Positions 22,779-53,185 of a stretch of 64,000 nucleotides of DNA are shown piece by piece. Within the stretch, counting starts at the first letter, position 1, and each line of letters starts with the position of its first letter. A program made the translations under genes and the position numbers. This DNA is from Falsiroseomonas oleicola (GTDB taxonomy: Bacteria; Pseudomonadota; Alphaproteobacteria; Acetobacterales; Acetobacteraceae), in the NCBI RefSeq assembly GCF_019029495.1, contig NZ_JAERQM010000004.1, forward strand, positions 354,880 through 418,879, read 5' to 3'. Below the pieces are notes generated by a model. That model saw only the letters and a program-made list of their open reading frames with translations, was not told the DNA's origin and did not search any database.

Positions 22779-23198
22779 ATGCAGCCCCCGCTCTACGCCG
22801 CCTATGGCAGCAATCTCGACCATGCCCGGATGACGGAACGCTGCCCCGGGGCGGCGCCGGCCGGCGCGCTGCTGCTGCCCGGCTGGCGCCTGGTGCTGCG
22901 CCGCTTCGCCGATATCGAGCCGGAGCCGGGGGCGCTGCTGCCGATTGGCCTCTGGCGCATCACCCCGCGCCACCTGCGGGCGCTGGATCGATTCGAGGGC
23001 ACGGCGCTCGGCGTCTATGAGCGGCTGAAGCTGCCGCTGCCGGATGGGGGCGAGGCCTGGATCTATGTCGGGCGGCGGCTGAAGCCGGGGCCGCCGGCGG
23101 GCTGGTATGTCGGGCATCTGCGCCGGGGCTATCGTGAATTCGGGCTGGCGGACTCGCCGCTGGAGGCGGCGCTGGCGGAATCGGGCTTCGTGGTTTGA
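22779..23198 (+). CDS. Gamma-glutamylcyclotransferase-like protein
   Basis: This 139-residue protein has the AIG2/GGCT fold. YAAYGSNLDHARMTERCPGA at residues 6-25 contains the YGSNL substrate loop, and the expected catalytic Glu is in LDRFEGTALGVY. WRITPRHLRALDRFEG matches the family core. It may cleave gamma-glutamylamines or related amides. It starts 47 bp from the divergent lactate permease, and its end overlaps the EamA gene by 70 bp on the opposite strand. Confidence 0.83.
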   Translation: MQPPLYAAYGSNLDHARMTERCPGAAPAGALLLPGWRLVLRRFADIEPEPGALLPIGLWRITPRHLRALDRFEGTALGVYERLKLPLPDGGEAWIYVGRRLKPGPPAGWYVGHLRRGYREFGLADSPLEAALAESGFVV

Positions 23199-24100
23199 AG
23201 CGGTAGCGCGGCCTGGGCATTCACCGCCAGCGGCGCGGCGCGGCGGCGCGCCACCTGCGCCTCCCGCCGCGTGATGTAGATGGCGGAACCGACGATCAGC
23301 GCGGCGCCGACGCCGAGCCAGATGTCCGGCACCTCCCGGAACAGCAGCACGCCCGTGGCGGCGGCGAAGACCAGGCGGATATAGGAGATCGGCGCGATGA
23401 CGCTGGCATCGACCATGCGCAGCGCATTGATCCAGAGATGCATGCCGAGCGGCCCGCAGACGCCGCACAGGATCAGCAGCCCGAAATTTCCCCAGCCCGG
23501 CCAGGCGAGCGTCGGCAGTGCGGCCGGCACGGCGACGGCCACCGCGACCACGCCGATCCAGAACATGATGGTGCCCGTGCGCTCCGTCCGCGCCAGGGTC
23601 TTGGTGGTCAGCACGATCATCGCGCCCATCAGCGCCGAGGCGAGGGCCGCCGCCAGCGGCCAGTCCAGCGCCACCGCCCCGGCATCGCCGGGGCGGATGA
23701 TGGCGACGACGCCGGCAAAGCCGACCAGCGTCGCGCTCCAGCGCCGCCAGCGCACCTTCTCGCCCAGCACCGGCCCGGCCAGCGCAGTGACGAACAGCAC
23801 GGAGGTGAAGGACAGCACGGTCGCCGTGGCCAGCGGCAGGCCGGTGAAGGCCAGGTAGTAGGTGTACCAGGACACGACAGACAGCACGCCGCGGAACAGC
23901 TGCATCGGCAGCGCCTTGGTGCGCGGCAGCGTCGGGTCCCGCGCCAAGGCCGGCAGGGTCCAGGCGATCTGGCCGAGGGCGCGGGCCAGCACCAGGGTGG
24001 CCAGCGGCACACCCTCCATCGCCTTCACCAGCGTGGTCTCCAGGTTGAAGACGAAGCCGGCGGCGACGGAAAGCAGCGCGGCCTTGGCGAATGGGCTCAT
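23129..24100 (-). CDS. EamA/DMT-superfamily permease
   Basis: This 323-residue inner-membrane protein has ten helices in two EamA repeats; examples are KAALLSVAAGFVFNLETTLVK at the start and ASVIAPISYIRLVFAAATGVLLF in the second half. It resembles the next gene upstream (24288-25142) in order and motifs (WYTYYLAFTGLPLATATVLS versus WGLYYYSFTRLDMATGTVLS), so the two are probably duplicates. The C-terminal 40 residues are soluble and Ala/Ser-rich. The substrate is unknown. Confidence 0.87.
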   Translation of the reverse strand: MSPFAKAALLSVAAGFVFNLETTLVKAMEGVPLATLVLARALGQIAWTLPALARDPTLPRTKALPMQLFRGVLSVVSWYTYYLAFTGLPLATATVLSFTSVLFVTALAGPVLGEKVRWRRWSATLVGFAGVVAIIRPGDAGAVALDWPLAAALASALMGAMIVLTTKTLARTERTGTIMFWIGVVAVAVAVPAALPTLAWPGWGNFGLLILCGVCGPLGMHLWINALRMVDASVIAPISYIRLVFAAATGVLLFREVPDIWLGVGAALIVGSAIYITRREAQVARRRAAPLAVNAQAALPLQTTKPDSASAASSGESASPNSR

Positions 24101-24130
24101 CCGATGCCGCGCCTCAAGGGGCTGCCCTGC

Positions 24131-24273
24131 GGCCGGCGTCCCGCGCCGGCCGAGCGGCCGAATGGCCGCCGCCGCTTATGCGTCATGCCGAAGGCATGCC
24201 TTCGGCATGACGAAGCCAAGGAAGCCGGAGGCTTCCGCCCGGCGTATGAGGGGCTCCGAAGCATTTCGGAGCA
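24131..24273 (-). repeat. Multi-hairpin structured element, copy A
   Basis: Read on the minus strand, this has hairpins at 24253-24272 (GCTCCGAA arm), 24220-24236 (GGAAGCC/GGCTTCC around a 3-base loop), 24181-24212 (a perfect 32-base palindrome), 24154-24169 (GCGGCC arms around a 4-base loop) and 24131-24151 (GGCCGGCG arm). Linkers CCCTCATACGCCGGGCG, CTTGGCTTCG and GCATAAGCGGCGG recur in copy B at 51725-51847, while the stems differ with compensated pairs. The element begins 15 bp past the end of the EamA gene at 24288. Confidence 0.8.
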
Positions 24274-24287
24274 CTTGGAAAGGACAC

Positions 24288-25142
24288 TCATCGGCGGCGG
24301 GCTTCCGCCACGGTGATGACGACGGCGCCGGTCATGATGATGGCGGCGCCGATCCAGCCGAACAGGTCCGGCACCTCGTTGAACAGGATCCAGCCCGCGG
24401 CGGTCACCACCACCAGGCGCAGATACTGGAAGGGGGCGATGGCGCTGGCCTCGCCATGGCGCAGCGCCTCCGTCACCATGAAGATGATGCCCGGCATCAC
24501 GGTGGCGACCACCAGCAGCAGCCCCATCTCCACCAGCCCGAGCGGCACCCAGGCCATGACGGCCAGCGGCAGCACGCCGAGGCTGGTGAAGACGCCGACC
24601 CAGGCCAGCACCGTCAGCGTGCTGTCGGTACGTGTCAGGCTGCGGGAGGACAGCGTGATGCCGCACCAGGCGATGGCGGCGACGATGGCCGCCGTCGCGC
24701 CCAGCGCATCCACCTCCGCCCCCGGCCGCAGCATCACGGCCACGCCGAGCAGGCCGGCGATGGTGCCGAACCAGCGCCAGCGATCCACCCGCTCCCCCAA
24801 TATCGGCGCGGCGAGCAGGGTGGTGAACATGACATTGGTGAAGGACAGCACCGTGCCCGTCGCCATGTCGAGCCGGGTGAAGGAATAGTAGTAGAGCCCC
24901 CAGCAGATGAGGGAGGACGCGCCGCGCAGCATGTGCATCGGCAGCCGCTTCGTGCGGAACACCGCCACACCGCTGGTCGCGATGCGCGGCGAAACCCACA
25001 GCAACTGCCCGAGGGCGCGGGCGAAAAGCTGCACCTCCACCGGGATGCCGCGCGCGGTCATCCATCGGATCATCAGCACCTCCGCCGCGAACAGCACGGC
25101 CGCCGCCGACATCAGGGCCGCGCCCTTCAGGTTGCCACTCAT
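24288..25142 (-). CDS. EamA/DMT-superfamily permease
   Basis: This is a ten-helix permease of about 284 residues. It opens LKGAALMSAAAVLFAAEVLMI and has the paired-repeat pattern (second repeat near GATAAIVAAIAWCGITLSSRS). It resembles the downstream EamA gene at 23129-24100 and may be a duplicate. The start at 25142 is chosen because the helix begins at once; ATG at 25154 is also possible, and neither has a clear ribosome site. A structured multi-hairpin element follows its stop. It is divergent from the ketopantoate-reductase-like gene. Confidence 0.85.
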   Translation of the reverse strand: MSGNLKGAALMSAAAVLFAAEVLMIRWMTARGIPVEVQLFARALGQLLWVSPRIATSGVAVFRTKRLPMHMLRGASSLICWGLYYYSFTRLDMATGTVLSFTNVMFTTLLAAPILGERVDRWRWFGTIAGLLGVAVMLRPGAEVDALGATAAIVAAIAWCGITLSSRSLTRTDSTLTVLAWVGVFTSLGVLPLAVMAWVPLGLVEMGLLLVVATVMPGIIFMVTEALRHGEASAIAPFQYLRLVVVTAAGWILFNEVPDLFGWIGAAIIMTGAVVITVAEARRR

Positions 25143-25231
25143 CCCGGGGAACATTGACGCGGCGCTGGTCCTCTCTAGCCTGGGATGCAGGGTGGTCAGG
25201 CCGCGCCGCGCCGCGCAAGGGCGCCGGGCGC

Positions 25232-26314
25232 ATGGCCGGCATGGCAATGGAGGGACTGGGCTTGGCAGGCAGGGATGGGGCGCGGGAGGCGGTGGATCAT
25301 GGGCCGATCCTGATCTGGGGCGCGGGCGCCATCGGCGGCACGGTCGGCGCCCATCTGGTGCGCGCCCGCCACGCGGTGGTGTTCTGCGACGTCGTGCCCG
25401 ACCATGTCGCCGCCATCGCCGATCCGGCGCGCGGGCTGGTGATCGAGGGGCCGGTCGCGCAGATGAAGGTCAGCGCCCCGGCCTCGCTGCCAGGTGATGT
25501 GAAGGGCGTGTTCCGCCGCATCTTCCTGGCCGTGAAGACCCACGACACGGAAGCTGCCTGCCGCCAGTTGCTGCCGCATCTGGCCGAGGATGGCTATGTG
25601 CTGTCGCTTCAGAACGGCTTGTGCGAGCGGGTGATCGCGGAGGTCTGCGGTGCGCATCGCACCATGGGCGCCTTCGTCAATTTCGGCGCCGACTGGATCG
25701 AGCCCGGCCGCATCCTCTACGGCAATCGCGGCGCCGTGGTGGTGGGGGAGCTGGATGGCGCGACCACGCCACGCGTCCAGGCGCTGCACGCGCTGCTGGC
25801 CGCGACCTTCGAGCCGGATGCGGTGCTGACCCCCAATATCTGGGGCTATCTCTGGGGCAAGCTGGCCTATTCCAGCCTGCTCTATGCCCAGGGCCTGGCC
25901 GAGAAGGGCATCGCCGACACGCTGGCGCGCAGCGAACTGCTGCCGCTGGTCCGCGCTCTCTGCGGCGAGGTCATCGCCGTGGCCCGCGCCGAAGGCGTGA
26001 CGCCCCTCGGCTTCAACGGATTCGATCCGGCGGCTTTCGGCCCGGGCGGAACGGAAGACGCGGCGCGCGCCTCCATGATCGCGATGGAGGCCTTCAATCG
26101 CCCCAACGCAAAGACCCATTCGGGCATCTGGCGTGACCTCTGGGTGCGGCATCGTGCGACGCCCGCCGATGCGCAGATCGGCGCCGTGCCGCCGATTGGC
26201 CGCGCGCATGGCCTGGCCTGCCCGACGCTGGAGCGGCTGATCGCCATGATCCATGAATGCGAGCGCGGCGAACGCCCTATGGCGGATTCGAACCTGACGG
26301 AGCTGATGGCATGA
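25232..26314 (+). CDS. Ketopantoate reductase family (ApbA/PanE-like) oxidoreductase
   Basis: This protein of about 360 residues has an N-terminal Rossmann motif ILIWGAGAIGGTVGAHLVRA, LAVKTHDTEAACRQL and SLQNGLCERVIAE, which follow the PanE order, and a helical C-terminal domain beginning WGYLWGKLAYSSLLYAQG. PanE makes pantoate with NADPH, but this subgroup is broad, and the lack of panB/panC neighbours leaves the substrate open. ATG codons at 25232, 25241 and 25247 are all plausible. Its stop overlaps the SDR start (ATGA), so the pair probably acts in one pathway. Confidence 0.83.
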   Translation: MAGMAMEGLGLAGRDGAREAVDHGPILIWGAGAIGGTVGAHLVRARHAVVFCDVVPDHVAAIADPARGLVIEGPVAQMKVSAPASLPGDVKGVFRRIFLAVKTHDTEAACRQLLPHLAEDGYVLSLQNGLCERVIAEVCGAHRTMGAFVNFGADWIEPGRILYGNRGAVVVGELDGATTPRVQALHALLAATFEPDAVLTPNIWGYLWGKLAYSSLLYAQGLAEKGIADTLARSELLPLVRALCGEVIAVARAEGVTPLGFNGFDPAAFGPGGTEDAARASMIAMEAFNRPNAKTHSGIWRDLWVRHRATPADAQIGAVPPIGRAHGLACPTLERLIAMIHECERGERPMADSNLTELMA

Positions 26315-51363: not shown

Positions 51364-51717
51364 ATGACGACCAGGGAAATCGCGGAGGCCTTCGCCGCGC
51401 TGTGCAAGGCCGACCAGCATGAGGAAGCCGGCGACCGTTTCTGGGCCGACGACGTGGTGAGCCGGGAGGCCATGGAAGGCCCAATGGCGGAACTCCGCGG
51501 CAAGGCGGCGGTGAAGGGCAAGGGCGAGTGGTGGTACGCCAACCACGAGATCCATTCCGCCACCACGGAAGGCCCCTTCGTGCATGGCGACCAGTTCGCC
51601 CTGCGCTTCGAGATGGACATCACGGTGAAGGAAACCGGCCAGCGCATCCAGATGGCCGAGATCGGCCTCTACACGGTCAAGGATGGCAAGGTGGTGGAGG
51701 AACGCTTCTTCTACTGA
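51364..51717 (+). CDS. NTF2/SnoaL-like protein
   Basis: This 117-residue protein has a cone-shaped alpha+beta fold of the SnoaL/NTF2 type: REIAEAFAALCKADQHEEAG, FWADDVVSREAMEGPMAE, FALRFEMDITVKETGQRI and GLYTVKDGKVVEERFFY match the helix-strand order. Members bind or isomerise small hydrophobic ligands, but many are uncharacterised. The stop is followed after 7 bp by the hairpin element at 51725. Confidence 0.85.
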   Translation: MTTREIAEAFAALCKADQHEEAGDRFWADDVVSREAMEGPMAELRGKAAVKGKGEWWYANHEIHSATTEGPFVHGDQFALRFEMDITVKETGQRIQMAEIGLYTVKDGKVVEERFFY

Positions 51718-51724
51718 TACTAAC

Positions 51725-51847
51725 GGCCTGAAACGCTGACACGTTTCAGGCCCCTCAGACGCCGGGCGCAAACCTCCGGTTTGCTTGGCTTCGCCGCATA
51801 AGCGGCGGGCCGCATTCGCGGCCTCGGACCGGTCAAGCGACCGGTCC
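51725..51847 (+). repeat. Multi-hairpin structured element, copy B
   Basis: Read on the plus strand, hairpins lie at 51725-51752 (GGCCTGAAACG arm), 51768-51784 (GCAAACC/GGTTTGC around TCC), 51793-51806 (GCCGC-ATAA-GCGGC), 51808-51823 (GGCCGC-ATTC-GCGGCC) and 51826-51847 (GGACCGGTC arm). Linkers match copy A at 24131-24273. The last hairpin overlaps the 3' end of the opposite-strand membrane gene and supplies its stop codon. It begins within 9 bp of the NTF2-like gene's stop. Confidence 0.8.
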
Positions 51848-53185
51848 GCTGGTATGCGCCTCGGCTCGTCGCGGAATCGCCACCAGCGCGACGGCCAGCG
51901 GCAGCAGCCAGATGATCCGCGCCTGGTAGCGGTGGTGCGGCTTGGACAATGCCCCGGCGACGGCGGCATTGGCCAGCAGCGCCACCAGCACGAAGCCGAG
52001 CAAAGCGAGCCGCTGCCGGTCCCCGGCCCGCGCCGCCCGCCAGCCCAGCCACAGCGCCGCCACCAGCGCCACGGCGAGGACCGGCAGATGCGGCGAGAGC
52101 CAGGGCGCGGCCAGCGCCGGCAAGGCGCCGCGCATCTGCGCCCCGGTATCGAATTGCGCCAGCTCCTCCGCCGGGAAGTGGCCGGCAATGGCGCGGCGGG
52201 CGGAGGCGGTGAGGTGGTCCGGCACCAGCGTGTCGCCCACCCGCATCAGACCGAGCTGGGTCATCATGTTGCGCAGGCCGGCGAGGGCGACCTCCGTTGG
52301 GTAGGCCGCCAGCGTCGCGGAAATGATCTCCCGCGCCTCCGCCGCGCCGCGCATGGCGCCCATCGGGCGGAGCTGTCCATCGGCCTCCCGGTTCAGCGGG
52401 CTGGTCTCGTCCCAGAGGAAGGTATCGCTGTCCATCGGCAGGCGGTCGGTGAAGGCGCAGAGGTGCCAGCTGGCCCCAGGGCAGCGATCCCGCAGCAGGG
52501 CGGCCGCCGGCCCATCCGCCTGCAGCCGCGCCAGCAGGAAGGCGGCGCCATGCGGCGAGAGGGTGAAGCGGCCGAAGGCCACATGGTTGGCCGTGCAGAG
52601 CAGCAGCACCGCCAGCGCCACCGGCAGCGCCGCCCGCAACACCGGCCCGAACCTCCAGGTCAGGAGCAGGATCAGCGCCAGCAGCGACAGGGCCATCGGC
52701 AGGTGCGACAGGTGGACGGCGATCGCCAGCACCGTGATCCCGCCCACCCACAGGCTCTGCCCCAGGCGCAGCCTGCCGAAGGCCAGCAGGAACAGCCCCA
52801 GCGGCACCAGCCCGGTCAGCGCATCCGGCATCAGCGTCGCCAGGAACCAGGGCGCCGAGCTCAGCAGCCCCAGCCCGGCGCAGACCAGCAGATGCCAGCC
52901 CGGATGCGGCCGGCCGCGCAGCGCGCCCTGGGTCAGCCAGATGAGATGCGAGGCCAGCACCCCCTGCACCAGCATCGGCGCCCAGAGCGAGCGCTGCCAA
53001 TGGAACAGGTGCAGGAAGGGGCCATAGGCCTGGGTCTTGTCCCAGGGCACTTCGGGCTGGGTCGTGTGCAGCAGGTAGGACACAGTGTCGATGAAGACCA
53101 GCGGATAGCCATTCAGCCAGGCCGGCCAGACCAGCAGCGGCGCGCCCGCCAGCACGGCCAGCAGCGCGATCAGCCGCGCCATCAC
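51833..53185 (-). CDS. Multi-pass membrane protein, paralog 1 (GT-C-like, unrecognised)
   Basis: This 450-residue protein has about ten hydrophobic segments. It opens LIALLAVLAGAPLLVWPAWLNGYPLVFIDTVSYLLH, in which an Asp after the first helix (IDTVSYL) resembles the first-loop acid of GT-C glycosyltransferases. Shared signatures with the next gene are RLQADGPAAALLRDRCPG, LPMDSDTFLWD and LSKPHHRYQARIIWLLP. I cannot name it; a polyprenyl-sugar-dependent transferase or flippase is possible. The start is a GTG that overlaps the paralog's stop (GTGA). Confidence 0.7.
   Translation of the reverse strand: MMARLIALLAVLAGAPLLVWPAWLNGYPLVFIDTVSYLLHTTQPEVPWDKTQAYGPFLHLFHWQRSLWAPMLVQGVLASHLIWLTQGALRGRPHPGWHLLVCAGLGLLSSAPWFLATLMPDALTGLVPLGLFLLAFGRLRLGQSLWVGGITVLAIAVHLSHLPMALSLLALILLLTWRFGPVLRAALPVALAVLLLCTANHVAFGRFTLSPHGAAFLLARLQADGPAAALLRDRCPGASWHLCAFTDRLPMDSDTFLWDETSPLNREADGQLRPMGAMRGAAEAREIISATLAAYPTEVALAGLRNMMTQLGLMRVGDTLVPDHLTASARRAIAGHFPAEELAQFDTGAQMRGALPALAAPWLSPHLPVLAVALVAALWLGWRAARAGDRQRLALLGFVLVALLANAAVAGALSKPHHRYQARIIWLLPLAVALVAIPRRAEAHTSGPVA

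What the first reader, a model, noticed from the sequence alone, without database searches (positions are those of the whole stretch)
24131..24273. Multi-hairpin element with compensated stems (copy A, paired with 51725-51847)
Read away from the gene it follows, this element and the one at 51725-51847 have the same order: hairpin, linker CCCTCAKACGCCGGGCG, hairpin with a TCC loop, linker CTTGGCTTCG, GCATAAGCGGCGG, hairpin with an ATTC loop, CTCGG, hairpin. Linkers and loops are almost identical while the stems differ. In the TCC-loop stem the arms GGAAGCC/GGCTTCC here become GCAAACC/GGTTTGC (in element orientation), with both changed positions compensated. That pattern implies selection on RNA or cruciform structure, not simple duplication. 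Each copy starts just past a gene's stop. I know no named family that it matches.
Basis: seen in the sequence. Interest (0 to 1): 0.85.

Follow-up and report, generated by a model that had tools for sequence, protein, structure and literature searches.

The report
Hairpin-packed mobile repeat at gene ends
The element is one copy of a scattered, probably mobile repeat made of several hairpins, found in two orders of bacteria, that often sits in or beside the stop codon of a gene and whose hairpin arms change sequence together so that they still pair.

Summary
They belong to a dispersed family: at least 119 matches in the host genome, matches in 14 of 14 congeners, and the same linkers with different stems in Sphingomonadales. 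Stems covary (97.0% of 1353 cells paired in 84 own copies; score 0.449 against 0.090 shuffled). Own copies show as few G-T as A-C mismatches and no strand preference between tandem genes, so an RNA read on one strand is not favoured. Of 13 own copies whose syntenic place in one congener was inspected, 10 have no core there, one a largely intact orthologue, one a decayed remnant, one a different fragment. Copies with terminal repeats have 3-bp flanks, mostly TNA, identical in 11 of 29 (3.9 expected, p=0.00013), often a stop codon. The host has no RAYT transposase, no Rfam family reached threshold, and both copies lack a terminator-like site. Best reading: a non-autonomous MITE/BIME-like mobile palindromic element. 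Its transposase, and why its hairpins are kept, remain unknown.

The parts
24288..24290 (.). Left 3-bp flank TCA = stop codon TGA of the upstream EamA gene (24288-25247, minus)
   Evidence: sequence; EamA
24100..24287 (-). DNA of copy A inserted between the two EamA genes (188 bp)
   Evidence: genes overlap or abut in several relatives; G002 empty site
24253..24272 (-). Copy A hairpin H0
   Evidence: fold
24236..24252 (-). Linker 1 CCCTCATACGCCGGGCG; its last G pairs into H1
24220..24236 (-). Copy A hairpin H1 (GGAAGCC-TCC-GGCTTCC)
   Evidence: covariation
24211..24219 (-). Linker 2 TTGGCTTCG
24182..24211 (-).
24169..24181 (-). GCATAAGCGGCGG, 3' part of H2 (5' arm missing in copy A)
24154..24169 (-). 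Copy A hairpin H3 (ATTC loop)
24131..24151 (-). Copy A hairpin H4
24097..24099 (.). Right 3-bp flank TCA; with T24100 it forms the ATGA start of the downstream EamA gene (23129-24100, minus)
   Evidence: sequence
51715..51717 (+). Stop codon TGA of a SnoaL-like gene = left flank of copy B (right flank is TGC, 51855-51857)
51718..51854 (+). Copy B, whole element with terminal repeats TACTAACGG (51718-51726) and CCGCTGGTA (51846-51854)
51725..51752 (+). Copy B hairpin H0
51768..51784 (+). Copy B hairpin H1 (GCAAACC-TCC-GGTTTGC)
51792..51807 (+). Copy B hairpin H2 (CGCCGC-ATAA-GCGGCG)
51808..51823 (+). Copy B hairpin H3 (ATTC loop)
51826..51847 (+). Copy B hairpin H4

Best explanation
This is a non-autonomous mobile DNA element of the MITE/BIME kind: no gene, short terminal repeats (TACCARCGG...CCGYTGGTA in the best-preserved subfamily) and a conserved interior of fixed linkers and four variable hairpins. 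It is moved in trans by an unidentified transposase that joins it to a 3-bp TNA target. Because TGA and TAA are TNA, a copy landing in a stop codon duplicates it; in an ATGA stop/start overlap, the repeat plus the terminal A of the element leaves both genes readable, so such insertions survive. Shown: dispersal, empty and occupied syntenic places, flank repeats in a subfamily, compensated stems with fixed linkers. Inferred: movement itself, the trans-acting transposase, the filtering of insertions by selection, and that arms stay complementary because the hairpin works as DNA or because arms are rewritten from each other during replication. Transcribed copies may also act as 3' mRNA hairpins; that is not shown.
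For: At least 119 own matches and matches in 14 of 14 congeners searched. Of 13 own copies inspected against G002, 10 have no core at the syntenic place (by eye; the core model reports one core in those 13 intervals, the C23:529732 orthologue). Three-base flanks identical in 11 of 29 copies with both terminal repeats (3.9 expected, p=0.00013); N agrees in 11 of 17 TNA/TNA pairs, with A, C, G and T all represented. Single places: C25:275802 TCA twice against once in G002, copy A TCA twice against once, C23:503430 TTA twice against TCA once. In 8 of 29 the left terminal repeat directly follows a predicted gene's stop codon; in 16 of 112 copies a stop codon begins exactly 7 bases after the model's end, which is where the right terminal repeat ends in copies that have it. 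Convergent gene pairs enriched (51 of 110 against 60 of 412 adjacent pairs, p=1.5e-11), divergent depleted (5 of 110 against 60 of 412, p=0.003). No strand preference in tandem pairs, 27 and 27. Covariation. TNA with a 3-bp direct repeat is the stated habit of the IS1031 group (PMC12016507, one passage).
Against: No transposase with matching ends was found: of 2 PF01609 loci in the host, L255 lacks such ends and L256 shows a different inverted repeat; 28 of 66 PF01609 matches of relatives were scanned without a clear partner; other transposase families except Y1 were not searched. 18 of 29 flank pairs are not identical (a few of these rows rest on doubtful end matches). At C28:992, C28:172851 and C23:511293 no clear TNA repeat is seen. 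66 of 112 copies lack recognisable terminal repeats. A start codon followed by A is not significantly enriched at copies (18 of 33 against 173 of 412, p=0.20), so use of ATGA overlaps rests on single cases. Two of 13 places hold an orthologue or remnant in G002, so some copies are old.
Confidence: 0.66

Rival explanations
1. A cis-acting structured RNA at the 3' end of transcripts (stabiliser, RNase III substrate or Rho-related signal) that is kept by selection on the host; dispersal is secondary.
For: 105 of 110 copies classed as convergent, tandem or divergent have at least one gene 3' end beside them; stems covary strongly; core linkers recur in Sphingomonadales; an apparent orthologue downstream of tRNA-Leu has its last stem replaced by another complementary stem. 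Petrillo et al. 2006 report a preference of stem-loops for convergent spacers and argue for RNA function (PMC1590033, Discussion section read).
Against: Orientation 27 to 27 in tandem pairs; both strands fold about equally; G-T not in excess over A-C in own copies, 15 to 8 in relatives; 10 of 13 inspected places without a core in a congener.
Confidence: 0.21
2. REP/BIME repeats spread by a RAYT (Y1) transposase.
For: High-copy intergenic palindromes with covarying arms; close inverted pairs in Croceicoccus; tandem units.
Against: No Y1_Tnp match in the host and in 27 of 32 handles searched (two pairs are the same genome, so 26 of 30 distinct), while 5 of 14 control genomes ring; no core within the 7 loci that hold the Y1 genes; no GT(A/G)G head seen before H1-H4 in the alignments; 3-bp flank repeats.
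Confidence: 0.05
3. An intrinsic transcription terminator module.
For: GC-rich hairpins beside gene ends; in Sphingomonadales a T-rich tract often precedes the core.
Against: 0 terminator-like sites at either copy; a T-run after the last hairpin in 4 of 112 copies and an A-run before the core (antisense terminator) in 1 of 112.
Confidence: 0.04
4. Ordinary duplication or chance hairpins in GC-rich DNA.
For: The core matches are about 67-85% GC.
Against: 119 matches, linkers shared by two orders, compensated stems.
Confidence: 0.01

Closest known systems
MITEs mobilised by IS5-family (IS1031-group) elements
   Same: Short, no gene, terminal inverted repeats, 3-bp TNA direct repeats; the IS1031 group prefers TNA (PMC12016507, one passage)
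   Different: Terminal repeats TACCARCGG differ from the ISLrh end GAACCTGTC quoted there; interior is a conserved series of covarying hairpins; 66 of 112 copies lack clear terminal repeats; no partner found
REP sequences and BIMEs with RAYT transposases
   Same: Intergenic high-copy palindromes, inverted pairs and tandem units in some genomes, arms preserved by complementary change (PMC2817692, passages)
   Different: No RAYT in the host and in 27 of 32 handles searched, no GT(A/G)G head seen, four hairpins with long fixed linkers, TNA flanks in a subfamily
RIME, NEMIS, ERIC-like and other multi-hairpin intergenic repeats
   Same: Small, intergenic, hairpin-forming (recalled; NEMIS and ERIC are also named in the Discussion of PMC1590033)
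   Different: Sequences and order of parts were not compared here; that they differ is recalled

Membership tests
IS1031-type MITE | 3-bp TNA direct repeats | tested here: met
   11 of 29 identical, p=0.00013; TNA in 23 left and 19 right flanks of 29; shown for the terminal-repeat subfamily only
IS1031-type MITE | Terminal inverted repeats shared with an autonomous IS | tested here: inconclusive
   Terminal repeats present; no partner among 2 host and 28 of 66 relatives' PF01609 matches
IS1031-type MITE | Empty sites in relatives | tested here: met
   10 of 13 inspected copies without a core at the syntenic place in G002
REP/BIME-RAYT | RAYT (Y1_Tnp) gene in the genome, flanked by the repeats | tested here: not met
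   0 in host; 27 of 32 handles without; no core in the 7 Y1 loci, which reach about 1.5 kb to each side where the contig allows
REP/BIME-RAYT | GT(A/G)G head before the palindrome | tested here: not met
   by inspection of the alignments (H1-H4); feature from PMC2817692 passages
Known Rfam RNA family | Match above gathering score | tested here: not met
   0 in the window; best at copy A 22.9 bits against a gathering score of 45; none reaches gathering at copy B
Structured cis-acting RNA | Strand-specific covariation and G-U tolerance | tested here: inconclusive
   own copies G-T 9, A-C 11 of 1353; relatives 15 and 8 of 1873; 27/27 orientation; copies read from either strand could hide a preference
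Structured cis-acting RNA | Transcribed with an effect on mRNA | not testable with these tools
   no expression data
Intrinsic terminator | GC hairpin followed by a T-run | tested here: not met

The most novel reading that the evidence does not exclude
A new kind of mobile palindromic element that slips into stop codons and ATGA overlaps by duplicating TNA, so that it invades operons without breaking genes, and whose hairpin arms are rewritten together (by template switching or a hairpin DNA intermediate), so that stems turn over completely while linkers stay fixed across two bacterial orders.
Probability: 0.3. Interest if true: 0.75.

Novelty: new variant of a known kind. Interest (0 to 1): 0.55.

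Why it matters
It gives a clear natural case in which hairpin stems change while staying complementary and their linkers stay fixed, in many copies per genome and in two orders. That makes it possible to test whether arms are kept paired by selection or by a mutational copying process. It also shows how a repeat could enter tightly packed operons at little cost, by landing in stop codons, and it would add an annotation for a repeat for which I found no name.

Tried and rejected
Tried and rejected: RAYT origin; a PF01609 partner with TACCA ends, where the L280 transposase locus carries GATACCAACG but inside a longer inverted repeat, judged coincidence; P as an independent mobile palindrome (3 of 3 occurrences in 458 kb of one contig lie beside a core); enrichment of ATGA starts (not significant); plasmids (copy B as query, no match at 1e-5); gene context of Sphingomonadales copies (23 loci: 14 scored, 9 at an edge; the gene model was trained on the host, too weak to use). 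Literature: search listings, plus passages of four papers, a search inside a fifth with little of use (PMC10969869), and one section; nothing that I saw names this element. Whether RepRanger's REPs include it was not determined.

Limits: own-copy counts are lower bounds (150 of 17000 first-look candidates scored). Context covers 112 of 119 matches. One search mapped 14 copies to G002 on both sides; 13 were printed and C23:494772 was not; two of the 13 share one place. Classing these places was by eye; one search agrees for the core, but does not see the decayed remnant at C30:72273 or the fragment at copy B. Background gene pairs are all adjacent pairs; with gaps of 100 or more they are 81 tandem, 37 divergent, 21 convergent, which leaves the direction of both effects the same. 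Alignments A3 and A4 were fitted to the model structure and lean towards it; A2 was aligned without structure, but the structure tested came from its consensus. Cells are not independent events. Gene calls are from my own codon model, not a published gene finder.

Full report
What is there. Copy A (minus strand, whole insertion 24100-24287) and copy B (plus strand, 51718-51854) share the order H0, CCCTCA-NN-CGCCGGGCG, H1, TTGGCTTCG, H2, H3, CTC, H4. Copy A carries a 30-nt perfect palindrome P in place of the 5' arm of H2. P-type palindromes occur 33 times in 25 of 112 own copies, in two slots; in copy A it differs from the common form by six bases at three symmetrical places and is still a perfect palindrome.

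Copies. BLASTN with copies A and B gave 46 and 45 matches in the host genome. A covariance model from 29 insert-free copies gave 119 at E up to 0.001, with 150 of 17000 candidates scored. It matched 14 of 14 other genomes of the genus (17 to 85 each), 0 of 8 genomes of other genera of the family, and 3 of 16 of other families of the class. A second model over the core matched 37 of 385 genomes drawn from the class, the host included, with stricter filters and 12 candidates scored per genome at most. A pattern search in named genomes gave 34 stretches: 8 labelled Falsiroseomonas, Roseomonas or Acetobacteraceae, 23 Sphingomonadales (Croceicoccus, Qipengyuania, Erythrobacter, Blastomonas and uncultured ones), and 3 from one MAG labelled Proteobacteria (lineages of Croceicoccus and Blastomonas marina checked, the others recalled). 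The pattern fixes the two linkers and H2; H1, the CCCTCA end, H3 and what follows are not fixed by it, and there CCCTCA recurs in nearly every row and the stems are again complementary. Eight genomes of such loci held 2 to 58 core matches. In two Croceicoccus genomes several are close inverted pairs. One genome of the genus list (G005) has element places that coincide with those of Roseomonas (Falsiroseomonas) ponticola, so the host is most likely Falsiroseomonas; this is an inference.

Structure. On 55 sequences of host, relatives and Sphingomonadales 97.8% of 918 cells pair, 184 cells are changed on both sides and none on one side only; covariation score 0.414 against 0.088 shuffled and at most 0.067 when slid. 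Two of its five measures (pairs with a change on both sides, further pair types) do not exceed the shuffles there. On 84 own copies: 97.0% of 1353 cells, 260 changed on both sides, score 0.449 against 0.090. On 116 distinct sequences of relatives: 94.0% of 1873 cells, 392 changed on both sides, 0.483 against 0.122. Cells with a change on one side number 5 and 10. Mismatches of the G-T and A-C kinds number 9 and 11 (own) and 15 and 8 (relatives). A structure kept as RNA on one strand should favour G-T; own copies do not show it, and 15 to 8 is weak. Copies can be read from either strand, so this does not exclude RNA function. The scarcity of one-sided states beside 652 two-sided cells suggests that both arms change nearly together; cells are not independent events.

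Place. Of 112 copies with context, 51 lie between convergent genes, 27 and 27 between tandem genes in the same or opposite orientation, 5 between divergent genes, and 2 overlap a predicted gene. In 458 kb of one contig the adjacent gene pairs are 292 tandem, 60 convergent, 60 divergent; convergent enrichment p=1.5e-11, divergent depletion p=0.003.

Insertion. In 29 copies with both terminal repeats the three flanking bases agree in 11 (3.9 expected by shuffling, p=0.00013) and have the form TNA in 23 left and 19 right flanks; among 17 TNA/TNA pairs N agrees in 11, with all four bases represented; in 8 of 29 the left repeat directly follows a predicted stop codon. In 16 of 112 copies a stop codon begins exactly 7 bases after the model's end, where the right terminal repeat ends in copies that have it. 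Copy A separates two EamA genes that overlap or abut in several relatives. TCA stands on both sides in the host and once in G002; it is the upstream gene's stop on one side and, with the next base of the insert, the downstream gene's ATGA start on the other. The shared flank there may be longer (TCATC). At C25:275802 TCA stands twice in the host and once in G002. At C23:503430 the host has TTA twice and G002 TCA once, at the stop codon of the convergent gene. Copy B follows the TGA stop of a SnoaL-like gene; its right flank is TGC. G001 and G008 have no element there, and G002 has a different, partial element after the same stop.

Comparison with G002. One search mapped 14 of 112 copies to G002 on both sides. 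Of the 13 printed, 10 have no core, 1 has the partial element (copy B), 1 a decayed remnant (C30:72273) and 1 a largely intact apparent orthologue (C23:529732, after tRNA-Leu). In that orthologue the H4 stem is replaced by an unrelated complementary stem, H2 is a longer palindrome and H3 is shortened. A model search of the same 1.2 Mb of G002 gave 5 cores at E up to 0.01, one of them this orthologue and none in the other 12 places. Against the reading: C28:992, C28:172851 and C23:511293 show no clear repeat, and 18 of 29 flank pairs differ.

Mechanism. A DDE transposase of the IS5/IS1031 kind is the best guess, because that group prefers TNA and makes 3-bp repeats (PMC12016507, one passage read). 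No partner with matching ends was found among 2 host and 28 of 66 relatives' PF01609 matches. RAYT is absent from the host and from 27 of 32 handles searched, and no core lies at the 7 Y1 loci found. The two window copies hold no terminator-like site and few copies have a T-run in the right place; no Rfam family reached its threshold in the window, and in seven Sphingomonadales and MAG loci no listed Rfam match lies on a core found there. The function of the hairpins is open: hairpin DNA or arm rewriting is preferred to single-strand RNA on the symmetry evidence, at modest confidence.

Known or new. Nunvar et al. describe REP arms kept complementary in RAYT systems (PMC2817692, passages). Petrillo et al. 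describe stem-loops near stop codons and in convergent spacers (PMC1590033, passages and Discussion). RepRanger lists an Erythrobacter and a Lichenicola genome with REPs (PMC12306157, passages). Four core strings were not found in the PMC library text. I place it as a new variant of a known kind. After checking against the calls I lowered the main reading slightly (0.68 to 0.66) and raised the RNA rival (0.20 to 0.21), because the strand test is inconclusive and only PF01609 and Y1 were searched for a partner.

Noticed in passing
window 24182-24211; C25:464696 and C25:464755 of the host genome: Accessory palindrome P sits in two fixed slots of the element (33 instances in 25 of 112 copies), sometimes both; in slot 2 it replaces the 5' arm of H2.
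   Followed up: partly
L358, L350, L372, L354, L359, L369: In two Croceicoccus genomes cores come in close inverted pairs, the second copy often a diverged variant.
   Followed up: partly
L311 2474-2772 and 5944-6013: Three tandem units about 115 bp apart with equal core scores, and a fourth further on, in a MAG labelled Proteobacteria.
   Followed up: no
L288, L303, L313 and others, just before CCCTCA: A T-rich tract such as TTTTTTGTTTT precedes the core in 12 of the 14 Sphingomonadales loci printed (my reading); in L303 it follows a hairpin and a tmRNA match below gathering score.
   Followed up: no
C25:322269, C25:275802, C12:360222 of the host genome: When a start codon faces the 5' end of a copy, TGAGGG (reverse of CCCTCA) stands a few bases upstream of the start, like a ribosome-binding site; not tested statistically.
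   Followed up: no
L280, about 1326-2820: A transposase ORF of 516 aa between long inverted repeats, one of which contains GATACCAACG.
   Followed up: partly
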